DNA of 58,222 bases from a virus, in the IMG/VR virus record IMGVR_UViG_3300031521_000075, positions 1 to 58,222 of that record; one strand, given 5' to 3'. The notes under the pieces were generated by a model. That model was not told where the DNA came from. It made no database searches and was given only the letters and a program-made list of their open reading frames with translations. Below are positions 33,777-52,363 of the stretch, piece by piece (position 1 is the first letter of the stretch; the number at the start of each line of letters is the position of its first letter). The position numbers and the translations under genes were made by a program.

Positions 33777-34169
33777 ATGAAGACAAAAAAAGAAAAACAA
33801 TTAGAAATTGAATTGTTGGTTGAAAAAATCCAACGCATTAGCAAAAAGAAAGTTACTTTTGTAGAAGCAAAAGAAAATTTATCTTTTAAAGAAAGTGTAA
33901 AAAGAAACATCTTAAAAGAAGAAGTTTATCCTGATGAACAAATTAATTTATTAGTTAAAAAACTAACTGAAAAAAAAATTCCTTGTAGAGTAAAAGTAGC
34001 AGATGATCAAACAATTATTTTGTTAGGAGCTTATTACCCTGATAGTTTATGTGATAAAGTTTATGACATTTTAGAATCCTTAGGAATGGAAGCCGAAATA
34101 TGTGCAGATTATTCTGGAGGTAGTGTTCAAAAAAACATTTCTATAAACGGAGGACCTAAAAGATATTAA
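33777..34169 (+). CDS. Leader-family protein A (capsid-cargo candidate)
   Basis: 130 residues. Residues 1-30 are the leader found on five other products: MKTKKEKQLEIELLVEKIQR, then ISKKKVTFVE. A second conserved block, SFKESVKRNILKE (36-48), is shared with the product at 34458. Both blocks end in x-x-E sites resembling the (I/L)-x-E cleavage motif of T4-type prohead proteases. The rest (KKIPCRVKVADDQTIILLGA...) is a small alpha-beta domain of unknown function. Convergent with the minus-strand genes; shares a terminator with them. Confidence 0.8.
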   Translation: MKTKKEKQLEIELLVEKIQRISKKKVTFVEAKENLSFKESVKRNILKEEVYPDEQINLLVKKLTEKKIPCRVKVADDQTIILLGAYYPDSLCDKVYDILESLGMEAEICADYSGGSVQKNISINGGPKRY

Positions 34170-34206
34170 AAAAAAAGGTTAGAAAATATTTTCTAACCTT
34201 TTTTTT
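34165..34206. terminator. Bidirectional terminator
   Basis: AAAAAAGGTTAGAAAATATTTTCTAACCTTTTTT is a near-perfect palindrome flanked by A and T runs, lying between convergent genes. Confidence 0.85.
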
Positions 34207-34210
34207 GTTG

Positions 34211-34453
34211 TTATTTCTCGTTTGCAATAACTTCGTAACCACTTCCGTAAATATATTTTACATCAAATGCAATTTTAGCACCATTTTTTAAATCTGTAAT
34301 ACTGTTTTTTAAATATTCATTTACAAATAAACCAACATCTTGTGTTGTACTAATTCTTGATAATCTTTCTTGCTTTTCTAAAACAACTTTCTTTCCAGAT
34401 TTTTTTTCAATCTTTTCAATTAATAATTGAATATCTTTTTGATTTTTATCCAT
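34211..34453 (-). CDS. Leader-family protein C, small
   Basis: 80 residues from the ATG at 34453, which leaves a four-base gap after the upstream stop. It begins MDKNQKDIQLLIEKIEKKSG then KKVVLEKQE, a diverged copy of the leader in the neighbouring genes. The remainder (FVNEYLKNSITDLKNGAKIA...) is short. The leader makes up a third of the protein. Probable virion-associated protein by association. Confidence 0.7.
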   Translation of the reverse strand: MDKNQKDIQLLIEKIEKKSGKKVVLEKQERLSRISTTQDVGLFVNEYLKNSITDLKNGAKIAFDVKYIYGSGYEVIANEK

Positions 34454-34457
34454 TTGT

Positions 34458-35189
34458 TTATAATTTAAAATCATTAATAAGTTTATCTGCTTCTTTAGAA
34501 CTTAAGCCTTCAACTTCGTATACCCAATCTAAATCAGTAAATGCTGTGTAAAAAGACCCACTTGAACTTTTAGGTAATGTCCAACTAATATCAAATTTTT
34601 TAGAATCATTTATTTGGTTTAAAAAATCCAAATAAGCTTCTTTACTGTCAATTTGCAAAGTTGGTGTTTGTTTTACAATTATTGAATAAAGAGTATCTCC
34701 ATTTATGTTTTTATTATAGAAATCATTTAAATCTGGAATGCAACTTTTAATTTCATCTAATTGTTTTTTTGTTGTTTGATAAACACCTTCATTAACATTT
34801 GTTTTACCTATGCTAGTATTTTCAGCAGGTAGTTTACTTTTTGAAAGTTTTAACAATTCTCTTGCTCTTACTAACGCTGAATGTAAACCGTCAGATAATT
34901 CATCATCTCCTACAAGAACTTCAAGTTGTATTTTTAATTCTACTAATTGATTAAACAAACTTTCTGCTTCATCGAATTCTTCTTTGTTATTAGGTAAAGT
35001 CCAAGTTCCTTCTTTTAAAATGTTTCTTTTCAAACTTTCTTTGAAAGATTTTTTTTCTTTTTCTAAATTTTCATTAGGTTTGTAATCTGGACTTGTTACT
35101 TCTTTAAACGTAACCTTCTTTTTACTTATTCTTTCAATTTTCTCAACCAATAAGTTAATTTCTAATTGTTTTTCTCTTTTTGTTTTCAT
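34458..35189 (-). CDS. Leader-family protein B
   Basis: 243 residues. The leader MKTKREKQLEINLLVEKIER + ISKKKVTFKE is nearly identical to that at 33777, and the second block SFKESLKRNILKE also recurs, here followed by GTWTLPNNKEE. The body is helical (FDEAESLFNQLVELKIQLEV) with a mixed C-terminal domain. Lies in the structural region upstream of a small leader-family gene. Suggested role: protein packaged into or attached to the head; not proven. Confidence 0.8.
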   Translation of the reverse strand: MKTKREKQLEINLLVEKIERISKKKVTFKEVTSPDYKPNENLEKEKKSFKESLKRNILKEGTWTLPNNKEEFDEAESLFNQLVELKIQLEVLVGDDELSDGLHSALVRARELLKLSKSKLPAENTSIGKTNVNEGVYQTTKKQLDEIKSCIPDLNDFYNKNINGDTLYSIIVKQTPTLQIDSKEAYLDFLNQINDSKKFDISWTLPKSSSGSFYTAFTDLDWVYEVEGLSSKEADKLINDFKL

Positions 35190-35210
35190 TATTTATTTTA
35201 ATTATTTAAC

Positions 35211-35642
35211 TTAACTAACTTCAATTGTTTTAGTAGCAAAATCAACTTCAATATATCCAATTATAAATCTTCCGTTTTCTTCAAACCCAACTGAACTTGT
35301 AAAATTCCAACCAGGATTAGAAGTGTCAAAATTTAACACCCATTCTATTACTTCACTATTACTTCTTTTCTGTCCTATTCTTTTTTCAATTTCTTGAATT
35401 ATATTTTCTTCTAAACTTTCTATAGGAAGATATAGTTCTATTTGACTTTTAATACTTTTATAAACAGGATCAATTGAAGAAATACCCCAAGATTTATATT
35501 GAGGGACAAGTTTGTAGATTATTTCAAACTCAAGGTTTCCTAAAACATCTATATCTACATTAAAATCTTCTATTTTGTAATACTTCAAAAGACCTCTAAT
35601 GTTTCCACTATTAATTTTACTTTTAAACTCTAAATTTTCCAT
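35211..35642 (-). CDS. Hypothetical protein in tail region
   Basis: 143 residues, mixed alpha/beta, no membrane span. MENLEFKSKINSGNIRGLLK then beta strands; a pair of tryptophans in WVLNFDTSNPGWNFTSSVG. Between tail tube and the leader-family genes, so it may be a minor virion protein. Unrecognised. Confidence 0.75.
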   Translation of the reverse strand: MENLEFKSKINSGNIRGLLKYYKIEDFNVDIDVLGNLEFEIIYKLVPQYKSWGISSIDPVYKSIKSQIELYLPIESLEENIIQEIEKRIGQKRSNSEVIEWVLNFDTSNPGWNFTSSVGFEENGRFIIGYIEVDFATKTIEVS

Positions 35643-35654
35643 TTTAATTATTAT

Positions 35655-35690
35655 AAAAAAACAAAGTCTTAAAAATAAAACTTTGTTTTT
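35655..35690 (-). terminator. Terminator downstream of tail tube gene
   Basis: AAACAAAG and CTTTGTTT (35659-35666, 35681-35688) form a hairpin with T runs in the minus-strand direction. Confidence 0.7.
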
Positions 35691-35716
35691 AATTAGTTAG
35701 TAATCAATAAATTATA

Positions 35717-36247
35717 TTAATATTCCATAGTATATGTATCATAGAAGATCTCCATAGTACAGTCGCAAATTCCATCATCATCTTGAGAAAGAGAGCCACC
35801 ATCTAAGTTAGCTAACAAACAACCGTGAAGTACAAACTTTTGCATTACTGCTCCTGTTGGATCTTCAAGGTTAAGAGTAATCTCTTTTTTGTATGTAGAA
35901 GCGTAACCACCTTTTCCTGATGCAGGATCAGTATGTTCTCTTTGCCATGCCTCTAATTTTGCATAAACAGAAGAACCAATTGCATCTCTAAATTTAACAG
36001 ACATTGACTCTGTTTGAGATTTTCCTTTGTATCTAAAATTCCAGTTTTTGAATTTTACATCTACAATATTATTTGTAACTTTAGGTCTACTAGCTTCAAC
36101 AGCAAATCTTTCATCGATTCCCATAAAACTTGGAAACTCTATTGACCATAAATCCTTTCTTAAAGGTTCAAACTCATTAGGTATATTTGAAAACATTTTT
36201 CCTGAACAAAGGAAATCTGATTTCATTTTTTTTATCATTTTGCTCAT
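35717..36247 (-). CDS. Tail tube protein (T4 gp19-like)
   Basis: 176 residues, the expected size. Features of gp19-type tube proteins: FAVEASRPKVTNNIVDVKFK, the strand NWNFRYKGKSQTESMSVKF, a helix with LEAWQREHTD, then YKKEITLNLEDPTGAVMQKF and LHGCLLANLDGGSLSQDDD before a final strand. It polymerises into the inner tube of the contractile tail. It lies downstream of the sheath gene with one small gene between, as in T4-like order. Confidence 0.88.
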   Translation of the reverse strand: MSKMIKKMKSDFLCSGKMFSNIPNEFEPLRKDLWSIEFPSFMGIDERFAVEASRPKVTNNIVDVKFKNWNFRYKGKSQTESMSVKFRDAIGSSVYAKLEAWQREHTDPASGKGGYASTYKKEITLNLEDPTGAVMQKFVLHGCLLANLDGGSLSQDDDGICDCTMEIFYDTYTMEY

Positions 36248-36259
36248 TATTTTATCTTA

Positions 36260-36514: not shown

Positions 36515-36529
36515 TTTTAAAGTTTCTTT

Positions 36530-36560
36530 CTTTTAAATATAACTTTTTCTTTTAAATATA
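36530..36560 (-). promoter_or_regulatory. Two tandem late-type promoter boxes
   Basis: TATATTTAAAAG occurs twice on the minus strand, at 36530-36541 and 36549-36560, 16-46 bases before the ATG at 36514. Same box as upstream of the capsid and protease genes. Confidence 0.6.
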
Positions 36561-36624
36561 ATTTTTTCATTTCTTTTTTAAGTTATTTTGTTCAAATTAA
36601 CTTAGTTTCTGTTTATAATTAAAA

Positions 36625-36666: not shown

Positions 36667-36695
36667 GAAGAAAAAAAATAATTATAATTTAATTT

Positions 36696-40348: not shown

Positions 40349-40380
40349 AAAAACCTTTATTTTTATTTAAAATCTTTAGG

Positions 40381-40765: not shown

Positions 40766-41557
40766 ATGAAAACAGGTAAAGAAAAACAATTAGAAATAGA
40801 CTTGCTGGTTGAAAAAATTCAACGTATTAGTAAAAAGAAAGTAGTATTTAAAGAAAATACTTCTACAATTAGCCTTCCAGAAAGTATTGAATCTTTTTTA
40901 CAGGATATTGCTAAAACAACTAAACTAATTAGTAATTCCGATATAACAAGATTCAACCCATCTCCTGAAAACCTTTCAGAAATAAGAAAATTAAAAAAGA
41001 AAATTATTTCTCTCCATGCTGACAGTAATCTTAACAATATTCCTGAAGTGAAAGAAGTTGTTGCTATTGTAAAAAAATTTAAAAAAGGAGTAAATAGAGC
41101 TTTAAAACAAAACATTAAAGAAAGTATAGAGCCAACTAAATTATCGTTTAATGAGTTGATTAATCGCGAAATTAAAAGTAATTTCCAAGATGATAGAAGT
41201 TTATTTAATGACATAATTTCCTTTTGTCAAGATGAACAAAATAGCAATGTTGAAAAAGCTCAATTAATTGATAAGTTTGATTCTGCTATGGGAGAAACTC
41301 CTGATACTTTACCTCTTTCTGTAAAAGTGAAAAAATTCTTGAAGGATGCAACCGAAGGAGAAAAATTTGAAATTACAGAAGAATTCGAAGCGGAAGATGA
41401 ACAAAAATTGTTAAATGATTTAAACGATTTAAAAACTTCTTTGAAAAGCAACACAATATCTTCGAATAACTACCAAAGTGCTTATTATAGAATTTCTCAA
41501 AAATTAAAAAAACTAAATTCAGGTAAAGAACAGTTAACAGAATTGAAAATAAAGTAA
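40766..41557 (+). CDS. Leader-family protein D
   Basis: 263 residues. The leader MKTGKEKQLEIDLLVEKIQR + ISKKKVVFKE is conserved in DNA as well as protein with the copy at 33777, so the exchange was recent or selection is strong. The predicted trim site is after FKE (residue 30). The body is helical and charged (SLPESIESFLQDIAKTTKLI ...), perhaps a coiled coil. A late-type box precedes it. Candidate internal head protein. Confidence 0.8.
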   Translation: MKTGKEKQLEIDLLVEKIQRISKKKVVFKENTSTISLPESIESFLQDIAKTTKLISNSDITRFNPSPENLSEIRKLKKKIISLHADSNLNNIPEVKEVVAIVKKFKKGVNRALKQNIKESIEPTKLSFNELINREIKSNFQDDRSLFNDIISFCQDEQNSNVEKAQLIDKFDSAMGETPDTLPLSVKVKKFLKDATEGEKFEITEEFEAEDEQKLLNDLNDLKTSLKSNTISSNNYQSAYYRISQKLKKLNSGKEQLTELKIK

Positions 41558-43383: not shown

Positions 43384-43476
43384 TTTTCTTTTTAATATAA
43401 GAAAAAAAGTTATAAACTTCAACTTTTGCAGAGAAATTTATAACCTTAAAAAAATCTAAAACATATTAGGTAAAAG

Positions 43477-43567
43477 CGGAAAAGGTGAGATTCAAACTCA
43501 CGCAACGATGTTTAGTCGTTCTAAACGCTTAGCGGGCGCTCCTCTTAAATCTCTTGAGTACTTTTCC
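43477..43567 (-). tRNA. tRNA-Ser (GCT)
   Basis: Acceptor GGAAAAG/CTTTTCC, anticodon stem AGCGC/GCGTT, T arm GTGAG-TTTGAAT-CTCAC, and a class II variable arm with AACGA/TCGTT. The anticodon GCT reads AGC/AGT. The loop is CCGCTAA, with C instead of the near-universal U at position 33. Its 5' 23 bases overlap the 3' end of the HNH gene, whose TAA stop lies in the D loop. Confidence 0.8.
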
Positions 43568-44600
43568 ATTTTAAATTTTTATTATCATTTAAGCTATTGA
43601 GTATGCTTAACTCACAATAAATTTCCTGTTTCTCTTCATAAAAGAATCCGTATTTTAACTCCCAGTTAGTTATCCTTTCTAGTAACTCAATTAAGGTTAT
43701 AGAACACTTTCTTTTTTTTAAGTTGTTTTCCGAATGAATCATTAATTTACAATTTGCTGGATGTGCTAACAATAAAGGATTAATGTTTTGCAATATCCCT
43801 TCATAAATAGAAAACATATGATCTCTACTTACTCCACCAAGATTATTACCCTTATTTGTGGGTTTATACCATCCATGTTTTTCTATTAAACTAAAATCAA
43901 ACTCTTTTGAAAATTGACTTAAGGGAAATTTAAAATTAGACAACCATTGATAATTTACCTTTACTGCTCTTTTTTTTAAATAAAACTTTTTATAACATTC
44001 ACGATTACAAAACCTTTTATTTGATCTGTACATAATAATATCTTTATTACACTCTAAACACTTTTCTTTTGGTAAACTACTTCCTTTAAGACACGTTCTA
44101 CTACAATATTTTCTATTTTTGATTTGACTAAGAGACAATTTTAATTCTTTATTACAAACAGGACATACCCATGTTTCTTTAGGTTTAATTACTTTTAACT
44201 TCCTACTTTCTTCTCTACAATCACTACACAAACAACGACTTAAATTTGTTCTTTTATCTACGTCTATCTCTTTTTTACACTTAACACAAATTCCTTTTTT
44301 TAAACACCCTGTAGTTATACGACTATTAGCACAAGACCTAGAACAATAATATTTCTTCTTTAAAGGAAATTGTTTTTCTCTTTCGCTTACTTCAAACGCA
44401 CTCTTACACTTTTCACAACTTACTTTAAAAATCTTTATTTCTCCTAATTTATCATCACGGCGTTTTTCAAATCCTTTTTTTTGATTCTCTCTAAATTTTT
44501 TTAAAAATTTTTCATCTTTGTGATACCATCTAACATGATTAGACTTTTGTTGACCTTTATCAAACTCTTCACCACAAATCTCGCACTTAAACCTCTTCAT
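43545..44600 (-). CDS. Zinc-finger HNH-type endonuclease
   Basis: 351 residues from the ATG at 44600. Many CxxC pairs form an array of zinc fingers (FKCEICGEEF, CEKCKS, YCSRSCANSR, CVKCKK, CPVCNK, CLECNK, FCNRECYKKF). The C-terminal region GVSRDHMFSIYEG ... HPANCKLMIHSENNLKKR is the HNH-like core (Asp-His, Asn, His-x-x-N). Probably a homing endonuclease. It ends inside tRNA-Ser, whose D loop supplies the stop codon. Confidence 0.85.
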   Translation of the reverse strand: MKRFKCEICGEEFDKGQQKSNHVRWYHKDEKFLKKFRENQKKGFEKRRDDKLGEIKIFKVSCEKCKSAFEVSEREKQFPLKKKYYCSRSCANSRITTGCLKKGICVKCKKEIDVDKRTNLSRCLCSDCREESRKLKVIKPKETWVCPVCNKELKLSLSQIKNRKYCSRTCLKGSSLPKEKCLECNKDIIMYRSNKRFCNRECYKKFYLKKRAVKVNYQWLSNFKFPLSQFSKEFDFSLIEKHGWYKPTNKGNNLGGVSRDHMFSIYEGILQNINPLLLAHPANCKLMIHSENNLKKRKCSITLIELLERITNWELKYGFFYEEKQEIYCELSILNSLNDNKNLKWKSTQEI

Positions 44601-44610
44601 TATTGTTTTT

Positions 44611-44622
44611 TTATTTAAATAC
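44611..44622 (-). promoter_or_regulatory. Late-type promoter box
   Basis: GTATTTAAATAA on the minus strand, 11 bases before the HNH gene start. Confidence 0.5.
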
Positions 44623-44664
44623 AACAAAAATCGGAATAAATTTAAATCGAACCCACTTTTTTAT

Positions 44665-44743
44665 TGGAGCCTGAATTCGGAATCGAACCGAAGTTAATTA
44701 TATTTTGCAGACATAACCCACATCCAACATTAGGTATTCAGGC
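44665..44743 (-). tRNA. tRNA-Cys (GCA)
   Basis: Acceptor GCCTGAA/TTCAGGC, anticodon loop CTGCAAA (GCA), T arm TTCGG-TTCGATT-CCGAA. TCCA is encoded at the 3' end, unlike the other tRNAs here, so its CCA needs no addition. Confidence 0.9.
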
Positions 44744-44766
44744 TTGTGTTGTTAATTTATAGTATT

Positions 44767-45477
44767 TTAAAACTTTAATTTTCTACCTTTTTTCCACCCT
44801 TCAGGGATAATTTCGTCTTTATTTAACTTTCTACTCCTTTTTTCTTCTAAAGAATAAATCCAGTATGTTCCAAATTGAGAATTTGTATTACCTAAACCTT
44901 TTCCTTTATGTTGCTTCATTTTATCTATTGTTTCTTTTGAATGTTTTTTTCCTTCAAAGGAACCTTTTAAAACTCCACTAGCATATCTTTCTTTTTTTGT
45001 TTTAACAGCACGTACAACTGCTTCTTGAAATTTTTTAGGATTATTTTCAAACCATTGTTTCATTCTTAACCCAATTTCTTTTTTTTGTTCTTCACTCCAT
45101 CTTTTTCCGTAAAACCCATTACCGCTTCCAGGAAAAGACCCACCTTCCCCTCCTGGTGCTAAATTAGTTAAAGGCCCTGTTTTAAATTTAGTAGTACCTA
45201 TTTCTTTTATTATTTTTTTTTCCAATTCACAAGCTTCTTCATTTAATAAATTTTCTCTTATTTTTAATATTATAGGTTCTAAACCCTCTTTTAATATTTT
45301 TTTAATTTTATTATCCTTATAAGTATTACAGCTATTACAACGTAAGTGTGCATAAAGTCTAAGACCTTCACCTTTTCCTATGTAAAAAGGCTCATAATCA
45401 ACCTCTAAACTATTAAAACTATAAACTCCTTTTTTTCTCGGATCTAAATAAACATATACATAATACTTGTTTTCCAT
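44767..45477 (-). CDS. GIY-YIG homing endonuclease with NUMOD-type repeats
   Basis: 236 residues from the ATG at 45477. The start MENKYYVYVYLDPRKKGVYS, then PFYIGKGEGLRLYAHL, is a GIY-YIG domain (catalytic Arg in GLRLYAH; Glu in NEEACELEKKII). The C terminus has short DNA-binding repeats: GFYGKRWSEEQKKEIGLRMK and FEGKKHSKETIDKMKQHKG (NUMOD3-like). It sits between tRNA-Cys and tRNA-Thr, a typical homing position. Confidence 0.9.
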   Translation of the reverse strand: MENKYYVYVYLDPRKKGVYSFNSLEVDYEPFYIGKGEGLRLYAHLRCNSCNTYKDNKIKKILKEGLEPIILKIRENLLNEEACELEKKIIKEIGTTKFKTGPLTNLAPGGEGGSFPGSGNGFYGKRWSEEQKKEIGLRMKQWFENNPKKFQEAVVRAVKTKKERYASGVLKGSFEGKKHSKETIDKMKQHKGKGLGNTNSQFGTYWIYSLEEKRSRKLNKDEIIPEGWKKGRKLKF

Positions 45478-45485
45478 TTCGTTTT

Positions 45486-45496
45486 TATTTAAATAC
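45486..45496 (-). promoter_or_regulatory. Late-type promoter box
   Basis: GTATTTAAATA on the minus strand, nine bases before the GIY-YIG gene start. Confidence 0.5.
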
Positions 45497-45567
45497 GAAA
45501 AAAAAGTTCGAATCTGATTAAATAAAACTAAAATAAGTAGCATTGTTTAAAATTCGAATTATTTTTG

Positions 45568-45639
45568 AGCTTTCTTTCGGAACTGACCCGAAAATTACTG
45601 GTTACAAATCAGTTGTTTTTCCTGTTAAACTAAGAAAGC
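45568..45639 (-). tRNA. tRNA-Thr (TGT)
   Basis: Acceptor GCTTTCT/AGAAAGC, anticodon loop TTTGTAA (TGT), T stem TTCGG/CCGAA with the unusual T loop GTCAGTT. An A/C mismatch lies at the base of the anticodon loop. Confidence 0.75.
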
Positions 45640-45654
45640 GTAATAAAAAATTAT

Positions 45655-45712
45655 AAAGTAAAACAGATTAAAAACTACTTAGAGGAGATCTAACTTTAAT
45701 CTATTTTACTTT
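45655..45712. repeat. 18-bp inverted repeat between tRNA genes
   Basis: AAAGTAAAACAGATTAAA (45655-45672) and TTTAATCTATTTTACTTT (45695-45712) pair at 17 of 18 positions around a 22-base loop. No T-run follows, so it is more likely a processing hairpin or small RNA than a terminator. Confidence 0.6.
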
Positions 45713-45758
45713 AAGGAAGGAATAAAGCTCAACATAGATATATAACTTGTTGATAATG

Positions 45759-45831
45759 AGCGGTAAAAGAATTCTGCCATCTTGACCCCTGGTTTGGAAG
45801 ACCAGCGCTCTAACTTCTGAGCTACTACCGC
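45759..45831 (-). tRNA. tRNA-Gly (TCC)
   Basis: Acceptor GCGGTAG/TTACCGC, D arm GCTC...GAGC, anticodon stem CTGGT/ACCAG with loop CTTCCAA (TCC). The T arm is degenerate (AAGAT-GGCAGAA-TTCTT, no TTC motif). Confidence 0.75.
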
Positions 45832-45987
45832 AAAATACCTAGTTTATTTATTTTATACTACATCGGGCTAGGTCACCGATCTAATCTTAAAAAATCGAAT
45901 ACTTAAAATCTATTTATCTTCACGACATTCTTTTTACCGTTAACTGATTCTTAACTTTATACGGTTGAATAAAGAAGTATTCAAAGT
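45832..45987 (-). other. Inter-tRNA spacer with possible RNA structure
   Basis: No gene seen. Pairings include GAATACTT/AAGTATTC (45897-45904 with 45975-45982), ATCGG/CCGAT (45862-45866 with 45876-45880) and ACCGT/ACGGT. It may be a structured spacer or a decayed tRNA. Confidence 0.35.
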
Positions 45988-46323
45988 TTATATTGTAGGA
46001 TATTTTTTATCTAATTCTTCAATAACCCAATAAGGACTATTTCCAGCTAAAACAACATTTTTAAATCCGTTTTTTAAAGTAACTATAGATTCTTTTTCTG
46101 TTACCGATCCTGTATATCTATCACCATAACTACCGGTTACTTGTTTAGTTGCTGGATCTATATCTCCCCAGTCGCTTCTACCGTTTCCTATTGGTTCTAC
46201 ATAATACTTTTTACCTGTTCTGAAAGACGTTACAATATGTCTTCCTGTTTCCTCAGAGTTAATTAAGAAATTCTTAATTGTTTCACTTATCCCATTTTTA
46301 CTTGGTTTTAAATTGTTTATAAC
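45988..46323 (-). CDS. Start-less reading frame, possible pseudogene
   Basis: An open frame of 111 codons without any ATG, bounded upstream by a stop 10 bases after tRNA-Ala. The sequence looks genuinely coding: GISETIKNFLINSEETGRHI, TGKKYYVEPIGNGRSDWGDI, ATKQVTGSYGDRYTGSV, and a helical end. Either translation begins at a non-standard codon or the 5' end was lost when the tRNA moved in. Family unknown. Confidence 0.5.
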   Translation of the reverse strand, partial: VINNLKPSKNGISETIKNFLINSEETGRHIVTSFRTGKKYYVEPIGNGRSDWGDIDPATKQVTGSYGDRYTGSVTEKESIVTLKNGFKNVVLAGNSPYWVIEELDKKYPTI

Positions 46324-46335
46324 TTATTAATTTAG

Positions 46336-46412
46336 TGGAGACTATGGGATTTGAACCCATGACCTTCTCATTGCAAATGAGACGCTCTAAGCCAGACTGG
46401 AGCTAAGTCCCC
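46336..46412 (-). tRNA. tRNA-Ala (TGC)
   Basis: Acceptor GGGGACT/AGTCTCC, D stem GCTC/GAGC with a long loop, anticodon loop TTTGCAA (TGC), T arm ATGGG-TTCAAAT-CCCAT. Confidence 0.88.
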
Positions 46413-46482
46413 GTAACCCTTTCTACGTGTAAGTTTCGAAAGGAACAATCTCACAAATATCTTTGTGACTTACTAGATCTTG

Positions 46483-46556
46483 TAGGCAAGGTTGGACTCG
46501 AACCAACGACCACGAACTTATCAGATTCGCATTCTAACCAACTGAAATACATGCCT
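46483..46556 (-). tRNA. tRNA-Ile (GAT)
   Basis: Acceptor AGGCATG/CTTGCCT (one T/T mismatch), anticodon stem CGAAT/GTTCG with loop CTGATAA (GAT), T arm GTTGG-TTCGAGT-CCAAC. The 70-base spacer to tRNA-Ala folds into small hairpins (CACAA/TTGTG). Confidence 0.85.
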
Positions 46557-46565
46557 ATATACTTT

Positions 46566-46769
46566 TTATTTTGAAAAATATTCTTTAACATTTATATACT
46601 TACGTTCATCTTTATATTCAAAGTAAGAAATTAAATCATCAACTACTTGATCTTTTGATGCCTCTCCGCTTGGATTTATCGCAAAATGAATTTCACTATA
46701 ATTATGTTCTTTTGATAATCTTTTTAACTTTTCTTCTTGTGTTTCACTACTATAAATAACTGAATCCAT
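46566..46769 (-). CDS. Small protein with strong Shine-Dalgarno
   Basis: 67 residues (MDSVIYSSETQEEKLKRLSK...), containing HFAINPSGEASKDQVVDDL. Its leader reads AAAGGAGGTAAAATG, a full anti-SD match. Other leaders in this window lack such a site, which suggests a different origin. It lies between tRNA-Ile and tRNA-Val. Unrecognised. Confidence 0.7.
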   Translation of the reverse strand: MDSVIYSSETQEEKLKRLSKEHNYSEIHFAINPSGEASKDQVVDDLISYFEYKDERKYINVKEYFSK

Positions 46770-46828
46770 TTTACCTCCTTTTAAATGTTTTTGATATTTA
46801 TTAAATATTATGTTTTTATAAAAATTGG

Positions 46829-46902
46829 TAGGAAATGACGGATTCGAACCGCCGACCTTTTCGATGTAAACGAATTACTCTAACCAACTGAGCTAATCTC
46901 CT
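46829..46902 (-). tRNA. tRNA-Val (TAC)
   Basis: Acceptor AGGAGAT/ATTTCCT, D stem GCTC/GAGT, anticodon loop TTTACAT (TAC), T arm GGCGG-TTCGAAT-CCGTC. Confidence 0.88.
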
Positions 46903-46980
46903 ATATTGTTAAGAACCCTCGTTATAAGATATGCAATCAAATACAGTATTTCTTAATTATGTTGTTTTTTTTATTAAAAG

Positions 46981-47054
46981 TGGTTCCTATCAGATTTGAA
47001 CTGATACTCTCGCATATTAAAAGTATGGGGTTTTGCCAATTAAACTAAAGAACC
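46981..47054 (-). tRNA. tRNA-Lys (TTT), copy 1
   Basis: Acceptor GGTTCTT/AGGAACC, anticodon loop CTTTTAA (TTT), T arm TATCA-GTTCAAA-TCTGATA. The top anticodon-stem pair is C/C. Confidence 0.85.
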
Positions 47055-47059
47055 AATGG

Positions 47060-47133
47060 TGCATTTGGCGGGACTTGAACCCGCAACCCACTGGTTAAAA
47101 GCCAGTTACATCTACCAATTGAGCTACAAGTGC
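47060..47133 (-). tRNA. tRNA-Lys (TTT), copy 2
   Basis: Acceptor GCACTTG/CAAATGC with one mismatch, D stem GCTC, anticodon stem ACTGG/CCAGT, loop CTTTTAA (TTT), T arm GCGGG-TTCAAGT-CCCGC. The body differs from copy 1, so it is not a recent duplicate. Two TTT tRNAs suit an AAA-rich genome. Confidence 0.88.
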
Positions 47134-47265
47134 TTATTAATGTTTTTTAAGCAACTTTAACCCTTGGTATATGTTGCTTTTAGCGTTTACTTTTTAATTG
47201 CTTGAACTTTTTCATTTTGTTTGTTTTTTAAATTGTTTAAATTAATATTTTTATTATTGTTTTTG

Positions 47266-47340
47266 TTGCGCGAGTGGGACTCGAACCCACGACCTCAAGA
47301 TTATGATTCTCACTATCTGACCAACTGATAATATCGCGCA
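47266..47340 (-). tRNA. tRNA-Met/Ile2 (CAT)
   Basis: Acceptor TGCGCGA/TCGCGCA, anticodon loop ATCATAA (CAT), T arm GTGGG-TTCGAGT-CCCAC. A CAT anticodon can be Met or lysidine-modified Ile; not separable here. Confidence 0.87.
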
Positions 47341-47353
47341 AAATGCTTTTTTG

Positions 47354-47428
47354 TGTCTCCTCTCCGAGTCGAACGGAAGCCCTTGGATTTTCAGTCCAAT
47401 GTACAATTACCACCTATACGAAGGAGAC
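47354..47428 (-). tRNA. tRNA-Phe (GAA)
   Basis: Acceptor GTCTCCT/AGGAGAC, anticodon stem TTGGA/TCCAA with loop CTGAAAA (GAA), T arm. Its 5' 38 bases are also the last codons of the endonuclease gene upstream, whose TGA stop is formed by U33-G34-A35 of the anticodon loop. Confidence 0.9.
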
Positions 47429-48254
47429 TTTTTATGTTTTTTTTACATTTACTTAATTCTCCGCTATATATTATTTGTATATTCGGAACAGCCTCTAATT
47501 TTAACTCTAGATTTTCATCTTTATCTGCATAAAATTTTCCTTTTACTTCAACCCATTTATTATGTTCTTCTAGATAAAAATCAGGATAGTATTTACTATT
47601 TTTCCCTTTCTTATTTACGTATTCAAAAAACTGTGTTGAGTTTTTAACCCATTTTATATTATTTTCATCTAACAACATTGCAAAAACTTTTTCAGCACCC
47701 GAATCCATTTGAAAGCCATTGTAAACGCTTCTATGTTTAATAGTTGAATTTATTTGAAAACCGCCTGATTGTTTTAACCAACATTCTCTATGATATTTTT
47801 TTAGATTATAAGATTTATGGTAAATTAACTCACCACATGCTAAACAAATTGAAGTTGTATCTGAGTTTTTATATTGTCGAGGTTGTGCATTTGCAAATTT
47901 AACTTTTTTGCTATTTTTTGAAGAAATAGATTGTTTTAATTTAACTTCATCTGATTTAACTCTACTATTTGCGCATTGTCTCGAACAGTGTTTTTTGTAT
48001 TTCCCTTCTGTTAGTTTTTCATATGTTACTTTTACTATATATTCTTTACTGCATTTTTGACAATAAACAACATGTTCTTTAGCTAAACTGCCACATGTTC
48101 TTTTTACTCCTTTACGTTGTTTTGAGACTTTTATACTCTTTGTTTTACTTACTACATTAGGATTGCATTTGCAATTAGAACTATGCGCTGCAAATTGTTG
48201 TGTTTTTTCAAACTCAAATTCTTCATTACAAAAACGACATTTATATTTCTTCAT
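47391..48254 (-). CDS. Zinc-finger PD-(D/E)XK endonuclease (Vsr-like)
   Basis: 287 residues. N terminus KYKCRFCNEEFEFEKTQQF and SSNCKCNP, YCQKCSKEY, HCSRQCANSR are zinc-finger pairs. The nuclease core is FQMDSGAEKVFAMLLDENN then YYPDFYLEEHNKWVEVKGKF: Glu, P-D and E-V-K, as in Vsr/very-short-patch-like homing enzymes. The N-terminal half is nearly the same as in the next gene. It runs into tRNA-Phe and stops in its anticodon loop. Confidence 0.87.
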   Translation of the reverse strand: MKKYKCRFCNEEFEFEKTQQFAAHSSNCKCNPNVVSKTKSIKVSKQRKGVKRTCGSLAKEHVVYCQKCSKEYIVKVTYEKLTEGKYKKHCSRQCANSRVKSDEVKLKQSISSKNSKKVKFANAQPRQYKNSDTTSICLACGELIYHKSYNLKKYHRECWLKQSGGFQINSTIKHRSVYNGFQMDSGAEKVFAMLLDENNIKWVKNSTQFFEYVNKKGKNSKYYPDFYLEEHNKWVEVKGKFYADKDENLELKLEAVPNIQIIYSGELSKCKKNIKSLLRIGGNCTLD

Positions 48255-48311
48255 TTCTTTTGAATAAAATCGAACCTTTTTTCTGGTGTTTTTATATTAT
48301 ATTTTAAAAAG

Positions 48312-48401
48312 CGGTCTATATCGGATTCAAACCGATCTGATTCGTTATTAACTTTCTCCCACGTGACAGGTGGGCGGACACATCCAGCATCCCCATAGAC
48401 C
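48312..48401 (-). tRNA. tRNA-Asp (GTC) with long variable region
   Basis: Acceptor GGTCTAT/ATAGACC, D stem GGAT/GTCC, anticodon stem CCCAC/GTGGG with loop CTGTCAC (GTC), T arm ATCGG-TTTGAAT-CCGAT, discriminator G as in normal tRNA-Asp. About 21 bases lie between anticodon and T arms, where tRNA-Asp normally has five. Confidence 0.75.
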
Positions 48402-48435
48402 ATAGTATTAATTTCCTTTATTTTAAATTAAAAAG

Positions 48436-48517
48436 CACGCACTGTAGGATTCGAACCTACGAGTGAAAATCAGAGAAGTTTGGAATTTCTTGCCGTCGAC
48501 CACTTGGCTAAGTACGT
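48436..48517 (-). tRNA. Class II-like tRNA, anticodon CCA (Trp) most likely
   Basis: Acceptor ACGTACT/AGTGCGT, D stem GCC/GGC, anticodon stem AGAAA/CTTCT (one A/C), loop TTCCAAA (CCA). A 13-base variable region folds as TGA-TTT-TCA, and the T arm is GTAGG-TTCGAAT-CCTAC. The D arm and variable arm look serine-like, the anticodon tryptophan-like. Confidence 0.65.
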
Positions 48518-48549
48518 ATTATATGCGTTATAAAGCCGCATCCCTTTAG

Positions 48550-48621
48550 TACCCCTACCAGGACTCGAACCTGAATCTAAAAATTAGAAGTTTTTCGTTC
48601 TATCCCTTGAACTATAGAGGC
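48550..48621 (-). tRNA. tRNA-Arg (TCT)
   Basis: Acceptor GCCTCTA/TAGGGGT (with wobble pairs), anticodon stem AAAAA/TTTTT with loop CTTCTAA (TCT), T arm TCAGG-TTCGAGT-CCTGG. Reads AGA, a favoured Arg codon in AT-rich phages. Confidence 0.87.
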
Positions 48622-48634
48622 ATTTAAATTTTTA

Positions 48635-49591
48635 CTACTTGTCTAAAATTTGTTTTCTTAACTTTTGATAGATTTTGTAAAACTCTAAATCATAATCAAA
48701 ATCCAACCATATCATTCTATATCCCTTTTCATCACAATATTTTTGTAAAGCTTCTTTTTTATATGGAATTGTTCTATTATAATTATGAGTTGAGTTATTA
48801 CTCCATTTCATTTTTACTTCTACAATATAAACTTCGTTTTCCTTTTTTACATAAAAATCAGGATTAAAGGTTCTATGGTTATTGTTTTCCCAAAAATTTA
48901 ATATATTTTTATACTTCTCTATCTTCTCTGCCTTAAAAACGTCTATTAAATAAACTATTGCTGCTTGTTCTAACCTAGAATCTGTTTTAAAGTCGTTTAA
49001 AAAACCGTAACTAAAACTTTCTTGCTTAGTATTAAAATTATCAGTTCCTCTTTCTTTTATTACCCTTTGTCGACTAAGTGAGTGTAAATAATTATTACAT
49101 TCTTTACTACATGTTTTAACACTCCATTTATAATCAAACTCTTTTTTACAAACTTCACAAATAGATTTTCTATTTGAATATTTACTAGATTTTCCTATAG
49201 ATATGTAATAGTCATCTCTTTTTTTTTGAGAAGATAAAAACTTTTCACTAGCTTTTAACGAATTAGATGTTTTTAAATTACTCTCTTCAGTTTTTATACG
49301 ACTATTAGCACAAGATCTACAACAGAATTTACTATACTTCTTTTTATTATAAGCCTGTTCTGTTATTTTTACAACATACTCTTTATTACATTTTTGACAA
49401 TTTAATATATATTCAAGTTTTAAAACTCCGTTAATTCTTTTTCTACCTGTTAGTTTTTCACTTATTTTAAAAGCTCTTGTTTTACTAATCACATTAGGAT
49501 TACAATTACAATTAGAACTATGTGCTGCAAACTGTTGTACTTTTTCGAATTCAAATTCTTCTTTACAAAAACGACATTTATATTTCTCCAT
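48635..49591 (-). CDS. Zinc-finger PD-(D/E)XK endonuclease
   Basis: 318 residues. Its N-terminal zinc region (KYKCRFCKEEFEFEKVQQF, SSNCNCNP, LNCQKCNKEY, FCCRSCANSR, CEVCKKEF) closely parallels the gene at 47391. The nuclease part differs: DSRLEQAAIVYLIDVF, then FNPDFYVKKENEVYIVEVKM, i.e. Glu, P-D and E-V-K, followed by a longer C terminus. Homing-type enzyme located between tRNA-Arg and tRNA-Asn. Confidence 0.87.
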   Translation of the reverse strand: MEKYKCRFCKEEFEFEKVQQFAAHSSNCNCNPNVISKTRAFKISEKLTGRKRINGVLKLEYILNCQKCNKEYVVKITEQAYNKKKYSKFCCRSCANSRIKTEESNLKTSNSLKASEKFLSSQKKRDDYYISIGKSSKYSNRKSICEVCKKEFDYKWSVKTCSKECNNYLHSLSRQRVIKERGTDNFNTKQESFSYGFLNDFKTDSRLEQAAIVYLIDVFKAEKIEKYKNILNFWENNNHRTFNPDFYVKKENEVYIVEVKMKWSNNSTHNYNRTIPYKKEALQKYCDEKGYRMIWLDFDYDLEFYKIYQKLRKQILDK

Positions 49592-49656
49592 TTCTTTTTA
49601 ATATAAATATGTACTTTTGAACAAAATCGAACCTAAAATCAATATTTATTTTTTTG

Positions 49657-49745
49657 CGCGCCAGGCAGGATTCGAACCTGCGGTGAAGATTTCTCTTACT
49701 GGATTAACAGTCCAGACTTTTCGGCCAACTAAAGCAACCAGCGCA
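49657..49745 (-). tRNA. tRNA-Asn (GTT) with long variable arm
   Basis: Acceptor GCGCTGG/CTGGCGC, anticodon stem CTGGA/TCCAG with loop CTGTTAA (GTT), T arm GCAGG-TTCGAAT-CCTGC. The variable region contains the hairpin AAGA-GAAA-TCTT, unusual for tRNA-Asn. Exact ends are approximate by a few bases. Confidence 0.75.
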
Positions 49746-50056
49746 TATTTTATTATATTATTTTATCTTAAAAAAAATAAACCTCAATTACAAAGAGTTA
49801 TACTTGATAACTGTACCATTGCAGGTCTACAACATCTCGGAACTTAATTATTTTAAATCATTATAACAAACTATAGATTTTAGCTACGTGTTTATTGTTA
49901 AATGTGTTTAAAACAGAGTTAAATCACAGAATATTAATTATTTGGCGCCCAAGCCATCTTGAGATCCTAACTTCATAGCGTTCTGACTTTACTAATCATT
50001 AGTTTAAAAGTTTTACTTTGTCAGTACGTGAAAACTTAGTAAAAAACCATATATTG
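49746..50056 (-). other. Gene-free tRNA spacer with hairpins
   Basis: No gene found. Hairpins include AGTTAT/ATAACT near 49797-49813, the palindrome ACTAATCATTAGT (49991-50003) and CTGAC/GTCAG around it (49983-49987 with 50020-50024). A GC-richer patch, GGCGCCCAAGCC, lies at ~49944. Possibly decayed tRNAs or stable RNAs; no TTCRA T-loop motif was found. Confidence 0.35.
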
Positions 50057-50138
50057 TGAGAATGGAGAGATTCGAACTCCCATGCCTGTTAAGAACCGGA
50101 GCTACAATCCGGCGAGCCACCAATTGCTCAACACTCTC
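50057..50138 (-). tRNA. tRNA-Tyr (GTA), copy 1
   Basis: Acceptor GAGAGTG/CATTCTC, D arm GAGC...GGCTC, anticodon stem CCGGA/TCCGG with loop TTGTAGC (GTA), class II variable region as usual for bacterial tRNA-Tyr, T arm GGGAG-TTCGAAT-CTCTC. Confidence 0.85.
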
Positions 50139-50148
50139 ATTTTATTTG

Positions 50149-50238
50149 TGGGTGCCAAGGGACTCGAACCCCTCTACTGTAAGGCCAATACGACGATTTG
50201 ATCAGGGCGGATTTACAGTCCGCTGCCGTTAGACACCC
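50149..50238 (-). tRNA. tRNA-Tyr (GTA), copy 2, D arm apparently missing
   Basis: Acceptor GGGTGTC/GGCACCC, anticodon stem GCGGA/TCCGC with loop CTGTAAA (GTA), T arm GAGGG-GTTCGAG-TCCCTT. Only six bases (ACGGCA) replace the D arm, while about 34 bases form the variable region. CTGTAA of the anticodon loop is complementary to TTACAG in that region. Confidence 0.65.
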
Positions 50239-50310
50239 ATTTTTATTACCTAATATGTCAAAGAACTTTATTTTTTTATAATTAGTTTAATGAAACCATT
50301 ATAAAAACAA

Positions 50311-50342
50311 AAAACCCGAAATCTTGTTAAAAACTTCGGGTT
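50311..50342 (-). terminator. Terminator of small late gene
   Basis: AACCCGAA (50313-50320) and TTCGGGTT (50335-50342); on the minus strand the stem is followed by TTTTTTGTTTTT. It insulates the tRNA cluster from genes to the right. Confidence 0.8.
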
Positions 50343-50368
50343 AATTATTAAATGTTTCCATTAATATT

Positions 50369-50530
50369 TTAAATCCGAAATCTTTGCGTTTTTTTGTCAT
50401 CTCCAAATCTACTTACACTTCCTGTAAAATAATTTGTATCCGCCGCTGTATTATATGTACACCAATTGCCAGTCATAATATTTCTATTATTTGTGATTAT
50501 TGTTTTAATATTTTTACTACTATTGTACAT
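50369..50530 (-). CDS. Small protein ending in FRI, paralogue of next
   Basis: 53 residues from MYNSSKNIKTIITNNRN; a longer frame to 50566 is possible. The end GNWCTYNTAADTNYFTGSVS ... QRFRI resembles the product at 50633 (KNWYTYKTIKTF ... LGIRI). Both genes are followed by near-identical terminators, suggesting duplicated gene-terminator units. Function unknown. Confidence 0.55.
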   Translation of the reverse strand: MYNSSKNIKTIITNNRNIMTGNWCTYNTAADTNYFTGSVSRFGDDKKTQRFRI

Positions 50531-50565
50531 TTTTATAATTTTACTTTCTTTATACTTTATAACCA

Positions 50566-50606
50566 AAAAAAAATCCGAAACTTTTTTACGTTTTCGGATT
50601 TTTTAA
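50566..50606 (-). terminator. Terminator between small paralogues
   Basis: AAATCCGAAA...TTTTCGGATTT hairpin with T runs on both sides; the stem sequence is related to that of the terminator at 50311. Confidence 0.8.
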
Positions 50607-50632
50607 ATTTAATTTCAACTATTAAATTATTT

Positions 50633-50734
50633 TCAAATCCGAATACCTAGCATTCCACAATCATTACTCACTCTATTACCAGCAAAGCTAATAGCGAAAG
50701 TTTTAATTGTTTTATATGTATACCAGTTTTTCAT
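50633..50734 (-). CDS. Tiny protein (33 residues), paralogue of previous
   Basis: MKNWYTYKTIKTFAISFAGN..., 33 codons, ending GIRI. It shares the N-W-x-T-Y-x-T core and -RI end with the product at 50369. It has a late-type box just upstream and a terminator just downstream, so it is a self-contained transcription unit. Confidence 0.5.
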   Translation of the reverse strand: MKNWYTYKTIKTFAISFAGNRVSNDCGMLGIRI

Positions 50735-50746
50735 TTTATTTGTTTT

Positions 50747-50759
50747 TATTTTAAATATA
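50747..50759 (-). promoter_or_regulatory. Late-type promoter box
   Basis: TATATTTAAAATA on the minus strand, 13 bases before the ATG at 50734. Confidence 0.6.
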
Positions 50760-50815
50760 ACTATTTTATTTTTTTTGTTAATTTTTTATCAATTATTTTT
50801 AACTAATTTGATACC

Positions 50816-50843
50816 CTAAAGATATAACATGTTTTAACACAAT
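50816..50843 (-). promoter_or_regulatory. Early-type promoter on minus strand
   Basis: ATTG and TATCTTTAG start 19 nt apart, with flanks (GTGTT, TATATCTTTAG) almost as at 10866. It is 82 bases upstream of the small gene at 50734, farther than usual. Confidence 0.5.
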
Positions 50844-50978
50844 CCACGGATTTTATTTAAATATTTTAAAATATTTTTTAATTACTTAAAAAATAAGTAG
50901 TTAAGTTTAAATTGTTTTAAAAACTTGATGTTAATATTTAAGAAATACAATTTATATTTCTATAATTTATCATATTTT

Positions 50979-50993
50979 TATATTTAAAATAAA
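50979..50993 (+). promoter_or_regulatory. Late-type promoter box
   Basis: TATATTTAAAATAAA immediately upstream of, and partly overlapping, the start-less GNAT frame. Confidence 0.5.
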
Positions 50994-51362
50994 AAAAAGG
51001 ATTTAAGAAAACAAATTTATCTTTTAGAAAAGTTAACTAACAAAAAAATTATCTTAAGAGAAAACTCAGAATTAATACAGTATTCACTAAAGAAAACATC
51101 TATTGGTTATTTAGTATCTGCTATTCAAAATGAAAAAACAATTGGAAAATTAGAATTTATTAAAAATGAATTCAAACCAGGGTTAATAGCAGCTAGTGTT
51201 GTAGTAGACCCAAATTTTAGAAGACAAGGAATTGCTTCTTCTATGTATGAGTTCGCTGAAAAAGAATTTAATTTAAAATTTATTAAAACAGATAGTGTTT
51301 TAACTCCTGATGGTAAACTGCTGTGGAATAATCCTAATAGAAAGTTTGGAATTGCAAAATAA
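50988..51362 (+). CDS. GNAT acetyltransferase with truncated leader, no ATG
   Basis: An open frame of 124 codons without an in-frame ATG before the catalytic region. The first residues (DLRKQIYLLEKLTNKKIILR-E) align with the leader of the capsid-cargo candidates. VVVDPNFRRQGIASSMYEFA is the acetyl-CoA-binding motif of GNAT enzymes (R/Q-x-x-G-x-G/A), preceded by the strand GLIAASVVV. The domain is short but has the right order. Either a non-ATG start is used or the gene lost its first codons. Confidence 0.6.
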   Translation, partial: NKKKDLRKQIYLLEKLTNKKIILRENSELIQYSLKKTSIGYLVSAIQNEKTIGKLEFIKNEFKPGLIAASVVVDPNFRRQGIASSMYEFAEKEFNLKFIKTDSVLTPDGKLLWNNPNRKFGIAK

Positions 51363-51420
51363 ACTTTAGAGGAAAATAAAAAACCCCTTAATTTAATTGA
51401 TTAAGAGATTTTAAAAAAAG

Positions 51421-51627
51421 TTATTTTTCTCTAACTATTATAATTTCTGGACACATATAAATATGCATTAAGCCACTAGCTTTATTACTATCCAAACCAA
51501 TATAACGTTCTTTTAATTTACCTTCTTTAGTTTTGTATTTGATTATTTCTAAGAAATCATGAATATATTCGCTTTGAGCAAGTAAATCTTGTTTTTCTTG
51601 TTCTGTATCTACAAAAATTCTTATCAT
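51421..51627 (-). CDS. Small hypothetical protein
   Basis: 68 residues (MIRIFVDTEQEKQDLLAQSE...), mixed alpha/beta, ending IYMCPEIIIVREK. It starts one base after the upstream stop, so it is co-transcribed with the leader-family gene. A weak hairpin (TTAAT/ATTAA) lies between it and the convergent GNAT frame. Confidence 0.65.
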   Translation of the reverse strand: MIRIFVDTEQEKQDLLAQSEYIHDFLEIIKYKTKEGKLKERYIGLDSNKASGLMHIYMCPEIIIVREK

Positions 51628-51628
51628 A

Positions 51629-52363
51629 TTATATTTTTTCTAAACTTTCTTTTACTCTTAATAAAAACTCACGTTGTCCTAAGTATTTCCATGATGCATC
51701 TACAAACTTTGGCGTAGAATCATCTATTACATAGCTTGTAGGGCCGCCACCTTCGTCAGTTACAGCATCAAATGTAAGAACATAAGGTTTTCCTTTTACA
51801 ATAATTTCCACTTGATATCCAATAGTCCATTTAATTCCACTACGACTCATTGCATCTTTTCCCATTCGAGTAATAGCATTACCGCCTTTAGAAAACTTAT
51901 AATCAAGTCCCATTTTCAAAAGAAGATTTGAAAGAGGTCCTGTATAGCTTCCTCTAAGTCCTTTATCACTTTTACTAAGATCATTTTGTTTTTGAACATA
52001 TTGAGAAGGAACAATTGCATTATCAAATGTATCTTGAATTTCTTGAGGAGTAGCTCCTAGTTTTAAAGCTTTATCTCCAAATTCTGAAAAACTACCATTA
52101 TAATAACGTCCAGATTGAGATATATTAATATCTTCTCCTTTAAGTTTAAGTCCTGCTACAAATCTAGCGATAGCTTTATCTTTATTAGTTATAGTAGAAG
52201 CTACACCTTTTCCATCTCCACCTTTTAATACTATATCTAACATTCTTTCCCAGTCTTTACTTCCAACTTTTGCTTCTGTTAAAACTACTTTCTTCCCAGA
52301 AATTCTTTGAAGTTTTTCAGTAAGCAACTCTATTGTTAATTGTTTTTCTTTGTTTTTAGTCAT
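51629..52363 (-). CDS. Leader-family protein E, next to capsid gene
   Basis: 244 residues. The leader MTKNKEKQLTIELLTEKLQR + ISGKKVVLTE matches the others and ends in V-V-L-T-E, a good (I/L)-x-E fit. The body contains SQSGRYYNGSFSEFGDKALK and a beta-rich C terminus (QVEIIVKGKPYVLTFDAVTD). Being directly downstream of the major capsid gene supports a head role. No known family. Confidence 0.8.
   Translation of the reverse strand: MTKNKEKQLTIELLTEKLQRISGKKVVLTEAKVGSKDWERMLDIVLKGGDGKGVASTITNKDKAIARFVAGLKLKGEDINISQSGRYYNGSFSEFGDKALKLGATPQEIQDTFDNAIVPSQYVQKQNDLSKSDKGLRGSYTGPLSNLLLKMGLDYKFSKGGNAITRMGKDAMSRSGIKWTIGYQVEIIVKGKPYVLTFDAVTDEGGGPTSYVIDDSTPKFVDASWKYLGQREFLLRVKESLEKI

What the first reader, a model, noticed from the sequence alone, without database searches (positions are those of the whole stretch)
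33777..52363. A shared cleavable-looking N-terminal leader on at least six different proteins: candidate capsid-targeting signal for internal head proteins
Seen: products at 33777, 34458, 34211, 40766, 51629 and the GNAT frame at 50988 begin with variants of K-E-K-Q-L-E-I-x-L-L-V-E-K-I-Q-R-I-S-K-K-K-V, ending in (F/L)-x-E near residue 30, but their bodies are unrelated. Known: in T4, internal proteins carry an N-terminal capsid-targeting sequence cut by gp21 after (L/I)-x-E. The window encodes a gp21-like protease, and its capsid protein has Q-I-L-A-E at residue 63. Inference: the leader loads diverse cargo (one an acetyltransferase) into the head, to be trimmed and possibly injected into the host. 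Two cargo genes share a second block ending I-L-K-E.
Basis: partly seen in the sequence, partly recalled or inferred. Interest (0 to 1): 0.85.

Follow-up and report, generated by a model that had tools for sequence, protein, structure and literature searches.

The report
Shared capsid-loading tag in T4-type phages
This uncultured T4-type phage, and at least eight related phage lineages, put the same short peptide tag on many otherwise unrelated proteins, most likely so that the proteins are built into the young phage head, cut free by the head protease and delivered into the host with the DNA; this would let candidate virion-carried effectors be listed directly from sequence.

Summary
Five window proteins carry the ~30-residue leader, and a GNAT frame without a normal start codon carries a divergent one. 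Other IMG/VR pieces of the same phage bring the total to about 15. Degenerate-DNA scans found the tag in at least eight further uncultured lineages; seven of nine tagged lineages have a gp23-type capsid gene and/or an S77 (gp21-type) protease on the contig. A profile built only from other phages recovers every window leader. The pattern has eight hits in 84,980 bacterial and archaeal genomes, all explained as epimerases or ATP synthase delta.

The capsid-targeting reading is supported by inference. Tags end KK[VI]x[LFIY]xE, in the same register as the capsid pro-site KKQILAE. Tagged genes lie in the portal-to-capsid block in three lineages. Predicted cut points coincide with domain boundaries in differently tagged or untagged homologues. 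The peptide is under purifying selection. Five C-terminal tags stop exactly before the cleavage Glu, suggesting that targeting and cleavage are separable.

It works like the T4 capsid-targeting sequence but is longer and differs in sequence. Virion presence and cleavage are untested. I rate it a new variant of a known kind.

The parts
33777..33866 (+). N-terminal tag MKTKKEKQLEIELLVEKIQRISKKKVTFVE of the 130-aa ORF 33777-34169
33882..33920 (+). second block SFKESVKRNILKE of ORF 33777; candidate second protease site (ILKE)
   Evidence: by eye; shared with ORF 34458
34370..34450 (-). N-terminal tag MDKNQKDIQLLIEKIEKKSGKKVVLEK of ORF 34211-34450 (internal ATG; lacks the x-E ending)
35100..35189 (-). 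N-terminal tag MKTKREKQLEINLLVEKIERISKKKVTFKE of ORF 34458-35189
35010..35048 (-). second block SFKESLKRNILKE of ORF 34458, directly before the 'GTW' domain found after SLQE in G005 and TLKE in G016
40766..40855 (+). N-terminal tag MKTGKEKQLEIDLLVEKIQRISKKKVVFKE of ORF 40766-41557
50988..51062 (+). divergent tag NKKKDLRKQIYLLEKLTNKKIILRE on the GNAT ORF 50988-51362; no canonical start codon
52274..52363 (-). N-terminal tag MTKNKEKQLTIELLTEKLQRISGKKVVLTE of ORF 51629-52363, next gene after the capsid gene
52495..54162 (-). gp23-type major capsid protein
   Evidence: PF07068 3e-58
53974..53994 (-). capsid pro-site KKQILAE (residues 57-63), same spacing KK-x-x-L-x-E as the tag end
54272..55840 (-). 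acidic scaffold-like protein (gp22 position; C-terminus RINFLMGMKDLDDEYYTM resembles the C-termini of the proteins at the same position in G004 and G021)
   Evidence: position and C-terminus by eye
55947..56927 (-). 326-aa head-core candidate between protease and scaffold; its C-terminal ~97 aa are homologous to the body of a tagged protein (G002 3-704)
56241..56258 (-). KKIIKE|D junction in the 326-aa protein, matching the tag-end junction KKVVFKE|D of its tagged relative
56931..57701 (-). S77 (gp21-type) prohead protease with conserved GELDHP and GISSR motifs
   Evidence: PF03420 8.5e-20; alignment

Best explanation
The peptide is a portable prohead-targeting tag with a built-in protease site. 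It is a predicted helix of about 20 residues followed by KK[VI]x[LFIY]xE. Proteins that carry it would be drawn into the assembling head core (scaffold, small core proteins, protease) before the shell closes. The gp21-type S77 protease would then cut after the Glu, as it is expected to do at KKQILAE in the capsid protein. The freed bodies stay in the head and at least some are delivered to the host with the DNA; the bodies include a 2H phosphoesterase, GNAT and Nudix proteins. In some proteins the tag sits at the C-terminus without the Glu, so targeting and cleavage appear separable. Shown here: the tag, its distribution, its selection, its gene context and the site register. Inferred: binding to the core, cleavage, encapsidation, injection and effector function.
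For: 1. Tag shared by about 15 proteins of this phage, nearly all at the exact N-terminus, and found in at least 8 other lineages. An HMM of other-phage tags recovers every window leader. 2. Seven of nine tagged lineages carry Gp23 and/or S77 on the contig. In 84,980 bacterial and archaeal genomes the pattern hits only GalE-type epimerases and ATP synthase delta, none of them N-terminal tags. 3. Tagged genes lie in the prohead-core block: between portal and protease in G004; around protease and scaffold in G012; on both sides of the protease in G021. In this phage one is near the portal and one follows the capsid gene. 4. Tag end and capsid pro-site share register: KKVFLKE and KKVVLEE versus KKQILKE in G021; KKVVLTE versus KKQILAE here. 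E follows in 27 of 31 N-terminal or internal tags. 5. Junctions mark domain boundaries: KKVVFKE|D versus KKIIKE|D before one homologous domain; ILKE, SLQE and TLKE each before GTW; untagged homologues of P0001 begin where mature P0001 would begin. 6. Purifying selection on the peptide: pN/pS 0.02-0.76, mostly below 0.5, with high pS. 7. Five distinct C-terminal tags all stop immediately before the Glu position. 8. The relative Flavobacterium phage immuto has its own, different shared leaders ending [IL][IL]xE.
Against: No virion proteomics. Four tags lack the Glu (34211, two in G004 8914, G012 19290). Homologues of P0001 are untagged in other lineages, so that body does not always need the tag. 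A tagged gene lies next to tail sheath or tail tube in several lineages, so an association with tail assembly is possible. The first DNA pattern required a Glu at the end, which inflates that conservation for hits. The scaffold shows no excess of [LI]xE (9 versus 13.6 expected). The tag helix is not more amphipathic than shuffles.
Confidence: 0.74

Rival explanations
1. The tag is a docking motif for another phage assembly or host-takeover machine (tail, baseplate or a transcription complex). It is not proteolytically removed, and the terminal xE is just the end of a helix-turn-strand motif.
For: C-terminal and internal copies exist. A tagged gene sits next to sheath or tube in several lineages. 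A similar string occurs inside ATP synthase delta, with no prohead protease involved.
Against: C-terminal copies lose exactly the Glu. The tag end has the register of the capsid pro-site. Junctions coincide with domain starts in homologues. The tag clusters in the core block beside the protease.
Confidence: 0.15
2. Ordinary paralogy or a DNA-level repeat: leaders share sequence because of recent cassette duplication, with no peptide-level function.
For: Leader DNA is 66-92% identical between genes of this phage. T-even internal protein genes are known to shuffle as modules (own knowledge).
Against: Synonymous sites are strongly diverged while the peptide is kept (pN/pS as low as 0.02). Tags are conserved as protein across lineages with unrelated bodies.
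Confidence: 0.04
(A sub-case of the best explanation, so its probability is not exclusive of it.)
For: Several tagged genes occupy gp67/gp68-like positions. One has a hydrophobic, probably membrane-spanning stretch after STLNE (G004 8914). Most bodies have no recognisable enzyme fold.
Against: Some bodies are enzyme-like: 2H phosphoesterase and GNAT, Nudix. Body content varies between phages, like T4 internal proteins.
Confidence: 0.3

Closest known systems
T4 capsid-targeting sequence (CTS) of internal proteins IPI-IPIII and Alt, cut by gp21 (PMC3012670, PMC5694885)
   Same: One N-terminal leader on diverse bodies; leader ends at a Glu-type prohead protease site; S77 protease and gp23 capsid; genes in the head region; bodies variable.
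   Different: About 30 residues instead of 10-20; different sequence; carried by about 15 proteins instead of a few; also used at C-termini (without Glu) and internally; F or Y tolerated at P3.
P1 DarB N-terminal capsid-targeting signal (PMC9024508)
   Same: About 30 N-terminal residues direct a protein to the capsid.
SPN3US / phiKZ propeptides cut by S80-type proteases (PMC5694885)
   Same: N-terminal propeptides on several head and ejection proteins, cut after Glu; gp53 and gp54 share 15 residues.
   Different: Propeptides mostly over 100 residues; A-x-E or S-x-E sites; different protease family.
Leaders of Flavobacterium phage immuto (found here)
   Same: Short leaders shared by several proteins, ending [IL][IL]xE like that phage's capsid pro-site QIVSE.
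   Different: Different sequences (FDLKKFLVENKLTxNSxLLxE; MKKQILSEQFKRMQxLAGIITE; MKKSxLRxIIKE).

Membership tests
T4-type capsid-targeting system | One short leader shared by proteins with otherwise unrelated bodies | tested here: met
T4-type capsid-targeting system | Leader ends at a Glu-type prohead protease consensus, (L/I)-x-E | tested here: met
   [LFIY]xE in 27 of 31 N-terminal or internal tags, same register as the capsid pro-site; F and Y are departures from strict (L/I)
T4-type capsid-targeting system | gp21-type S77 protease and gp23-type capsid in the same phage | tested here: met
T4-type capsid-targeting system | Tagged genes located with head or late genes | tested here: met
   for G004, G012, G021; none found in the 33-kb early region of the window nor in the replication region of G002
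T4-type capsid-targeting system | Sequence homology to the T4 leader | not tested
   T4 itself was not searched with the tag HMM; no relatives were found in 'phages' by tblastn, where low-complexity filtering may hide them
T4-type capsid-targeting system | Leader directs encapsidation and is removed in the virion | not testable with these tools
   needs virion mass spectrometry or a reporter fusion
Acb1 anti-CBASS / 2H phosphoesterase (cargo G002 4270-4938) | 2H fold signature | tested here: inconclusive
   PF13563 E 3e-5, PF23474 (Acb1) E 0.0011, both below the curated cut-off; HLT and HST motifs by eye

The most novel reading that the evidence does not exclude
A general cargo-loading code of uncultured T4-type phages: one tag that works at the N-terminus (cleaved), internally (between domains of polyproteins the protease cuts apart) or at the C-terminus (retained, Glu absent), used to pre-load a dozen or more different proteins, including an anti-CBASS-like 2H phosphoesterase, into each virion for delivery with the DNA.
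Probability: 0.3. Interest if true: 0.82.

Novelty: new variant of a known kind. Interest (0 to 1): 0.66.

Why it matters
In T4 and P1 only a handful of proteins are known to be packaged with the DNA and injected, and they are hard to recognise because their bodies vary. A readable tag that marks many such proteins in uncultured T4-type phages would turn virion-carried effectors, including counter-defence enzymes, into something that can be listed from sequence and tested. C-terminal copies that stop exactly before the cleavage Glu offer a natural way to separate targeting from cleavage.

Tried and rejected
tblastn of the leader against annotated phages gave nothing real (low-complexity filtering may hide matches). 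The search for related loci with a whole tagged protein found nothing. HMM search of the complete immuto genome and parts of LR756508, LR756511 and Mel-JY01 for this tag was negative (whole-record searches also negative). AlphaFold of the 51629 protein without an alignment was too poor to use (pLDDT 50). P0001 (pLDDT 73) has no PDB fold match at E < 0.001. The helix is not more amphipathic than shuffles, so no such claim is made. The scaffold is not enriched in [LI]xE. GalE and ATP synthase delta look-alikes were examined and dismissed as internal segments of those enzymes. G010 and G019 hits from the DNA scans were judged false. An excess of tags in late regions was computed (P 1e-5), but the 'rest' used there includes tail genes, so only the absence from early and replication regions is relied on.
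Full report
WHAT WAS CHECKED. The window (58,222 bp, 27% GC) is an IMG/VR virus fragment. It encodes a gp23-type capsid protein, an S77 prohead protease and a tail sheath, so it is a T4-type myovirus. The leader is present at 33777, 34458, 40766 and 51629, and in a close variant at 34211 whose start is an internal ATG. Leave-one-out HMMs give E 1e-6 to 1e-19, while the best of 13,780 shuffled ORFs scores 13 bits. The GNAT frame at 50988 has no ATG, GTG or TTG, and a stop lies just upstream. Its leader does not match the window leaders (E 6.4) but matches a model built from other phages (E 2.8e-4). An ATT start or a broken start are both possible.

THE SAME PHAGE HAS MORE. Contig 3300030339_000188 (G001) overlaps the window at 100% over 12,940 bp. 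Contigs 3300031521_000025 (G002) and 3300030339_000209 (G003) overlap each other at 99.95% and look like the rest of the same phage (same GC, complementary tRNA sets, 79-92% identical leader DNA); that they belong to the same genome is an inference. Together they carry about 15 tagged proteins. Bodies include a 2H phosphoesterase-like protein (PF13563 3e-5, Acb1 0.0011), GNAT proteins, a repeat protein resembling leucine-rich repeats by eye, and many unknowns. No tag was found in the 33-kb early region of the window or the replication region of G002.

THE TAG IS A FAMILY. Degenerate DNA scans of IMG/VR, followed by HMM scoring, found the tag in at least eight further lineages: G004, the G005/G008/G011/G022 group, G012, G013, G016, G021, G024 and G025. 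Most copies are N-terminal and most lineages carry several. Seven of nine tagged lineages (this phage included) carry Gp23 and/or S77 on the contig. G016, one of the two without, has a tail sheath. In 84,980 bacterial and archaeal genomes the pattern gave eight hits: six read as GalE-type epimerases (five of them scanned with Pfam, the sixth by its matching N-terminal sequence) and two are ATP synthase delta. That G010 is also an epimerase look-alike is judged from its sequence.

GENE CONTEXT. In G004 the order is terminase, portal, Nudix, TAG, 347-aa protein, TAG, protease, scaffold, capsid. In G012 two tagged genes precede the protease and one follows the scaffold. In G021 tagged genes flank the protease, and others lie after the sheath. 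Portals of G004 and of this phage were confirmed by PHROGs; scaffolds are assigned by position and C-terminus only. In T4 this is where the core proteins gp67 and gp68 lie (own knowledge). A conserved tagged protein also lies next to the tail sheath in G005 and G016 and just before the likely tube gene in G024, which leaves a tail role open for that one.

THE CUT SITE. Capsid pro-sites are KKQILAE here, KRQILRE in G004, KKQILKE in G021, AKQIVSE in immuto and RLFNE in LR756511. Tags end KK[VI]x[LFIY]xE, in the same register. E follows in 27 of 31 N-terminal or internal tags; note that the pattern demanded that E, while the pattern did not. Three independent cases place the predicted cut at a domain boundary. 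First, the body of G002 3-704 is homologous to the last ~97 residues of the 326-aa protein encoded between protease and scaffold; the junctions are KKVVFKE|D and KKIIKE|D although the upstream sequences are unrelated. Second, a 'GTW' domain follows ILKE (window 34458), SLQE (G005 6371) and TLKE (G016 13392). Third, untagged homologues of P0001 start where the cut P0001 would start.

SELECTION AND MODULARITY. Between leaders of this phage pN/pS is 0.02-0.76 (mostly below 0.5) with high synonymous divergence, so the peptide, not the DNA, is conserved. Related bodies occur with and without the tag: P0001 relatives, a repeat-protein paralogue at G002 80118, a Nudix protein in G004, and a 2H phosphoesterase in LR756511.

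C-TERMINAL TAGS. Five distinct proteins (G002 25413, the G005/G008/G011 protein, G021 44670, G024 29525 and 43645) end with the tag, and all stop exactly one residue before the conserved Glu: KKVVLI*, KKVSFV*, KKIVLE*, RKIRLI*, RKVVFQ*. The two G024 cases are weak by HMM score (E 0.002 and 0.09). The simplest reading is that the core of the tag does the targeting and the Glu belongs to the cut. This is an inference from five sequences.

COMPARISON. T4 internal proteins share only a capsid-targeting sequence that takes them into the scaffolding core, and gp21 removes it (PMC3012670, PMC5694885). In P1, 30 N-terminal residues of DarB direct a reporter to the capsid (PMC9024508). The tag here works like these by all features that sequence can test, but it is longer, of different sequence, on many more proteins, and used at both ends. 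The relative immuto has its own, different leaders ending [IL][IL]xE, which suggests that lineage-specific leaders of this type are widespread. The paper library searched is open-access only, so absence of a published description is not proof of novelty.

LIMITS. Nothing here shows encapsidation, cleavage or injection. The tagged phages are uncultured fragments. Structure prediction added only that the tag of P0001 is modelled as a helix (residues 4-25) followed by a low-confidence linker.

Noticed in passing
L066/L067 (G012, IMGVR_UViG_3300002220_000508) 21289-23232: The S77 prohead protease gene carries an intein-like insertion of several hundred residues exactly at the catalytic GELDHP motif.
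   Followed up: no
L026 (G002) about 4890-9496; L029 (G002 67056); L030 (G002 95546): The terminase gene and other ORFs of this phage show intein-like sequences (ends such as LLIHNC, FLVHNC).
   Followed up: no
L081-L084 (immuto, MW353175): Three further families of shared N-terminal leaders on otherwise different proteins, all ending [IL][IL]xE: FDLKKFLVENKLTxNS, MKKQILSEQFKRMQ and MKKSxLRxIIKE.
   Followed up: partly
window 33000-58222: TATTTAA lies within 70 bp upstream of 8 of 22 late-region genes against 4 of 46 in the early region (about 1 and 2 expected); a candidate late promoter element.
   Followed up: partly
window 29408-30292; L029 (G002 69299); L026 (G002 11302): Genes that look by eye like QueE, QueC and a GTP cyclohydrolase, suggesting 7-deazaguanine DNA modification.
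   Followed up: no
window 43476-50138: Array of 14 tRNA genes interleaved with ORFs that look like homing endonucleases.
   Followed up: no
L102 63-581 (and L147): Tagged 172-aa protein whose body (LLYHST...VYVSD...EGGTISV) recalls ADP-ribosyltransferase-fold proteins by eye; no Pfam or PHROG match.
   Followed up: partly
L061 (G004) 8914-9591: Protein next to the protease with two tandem tags, an Ala/Pro-rich linker, and a hydrophobic segment after STLNE.
   Followed up: no
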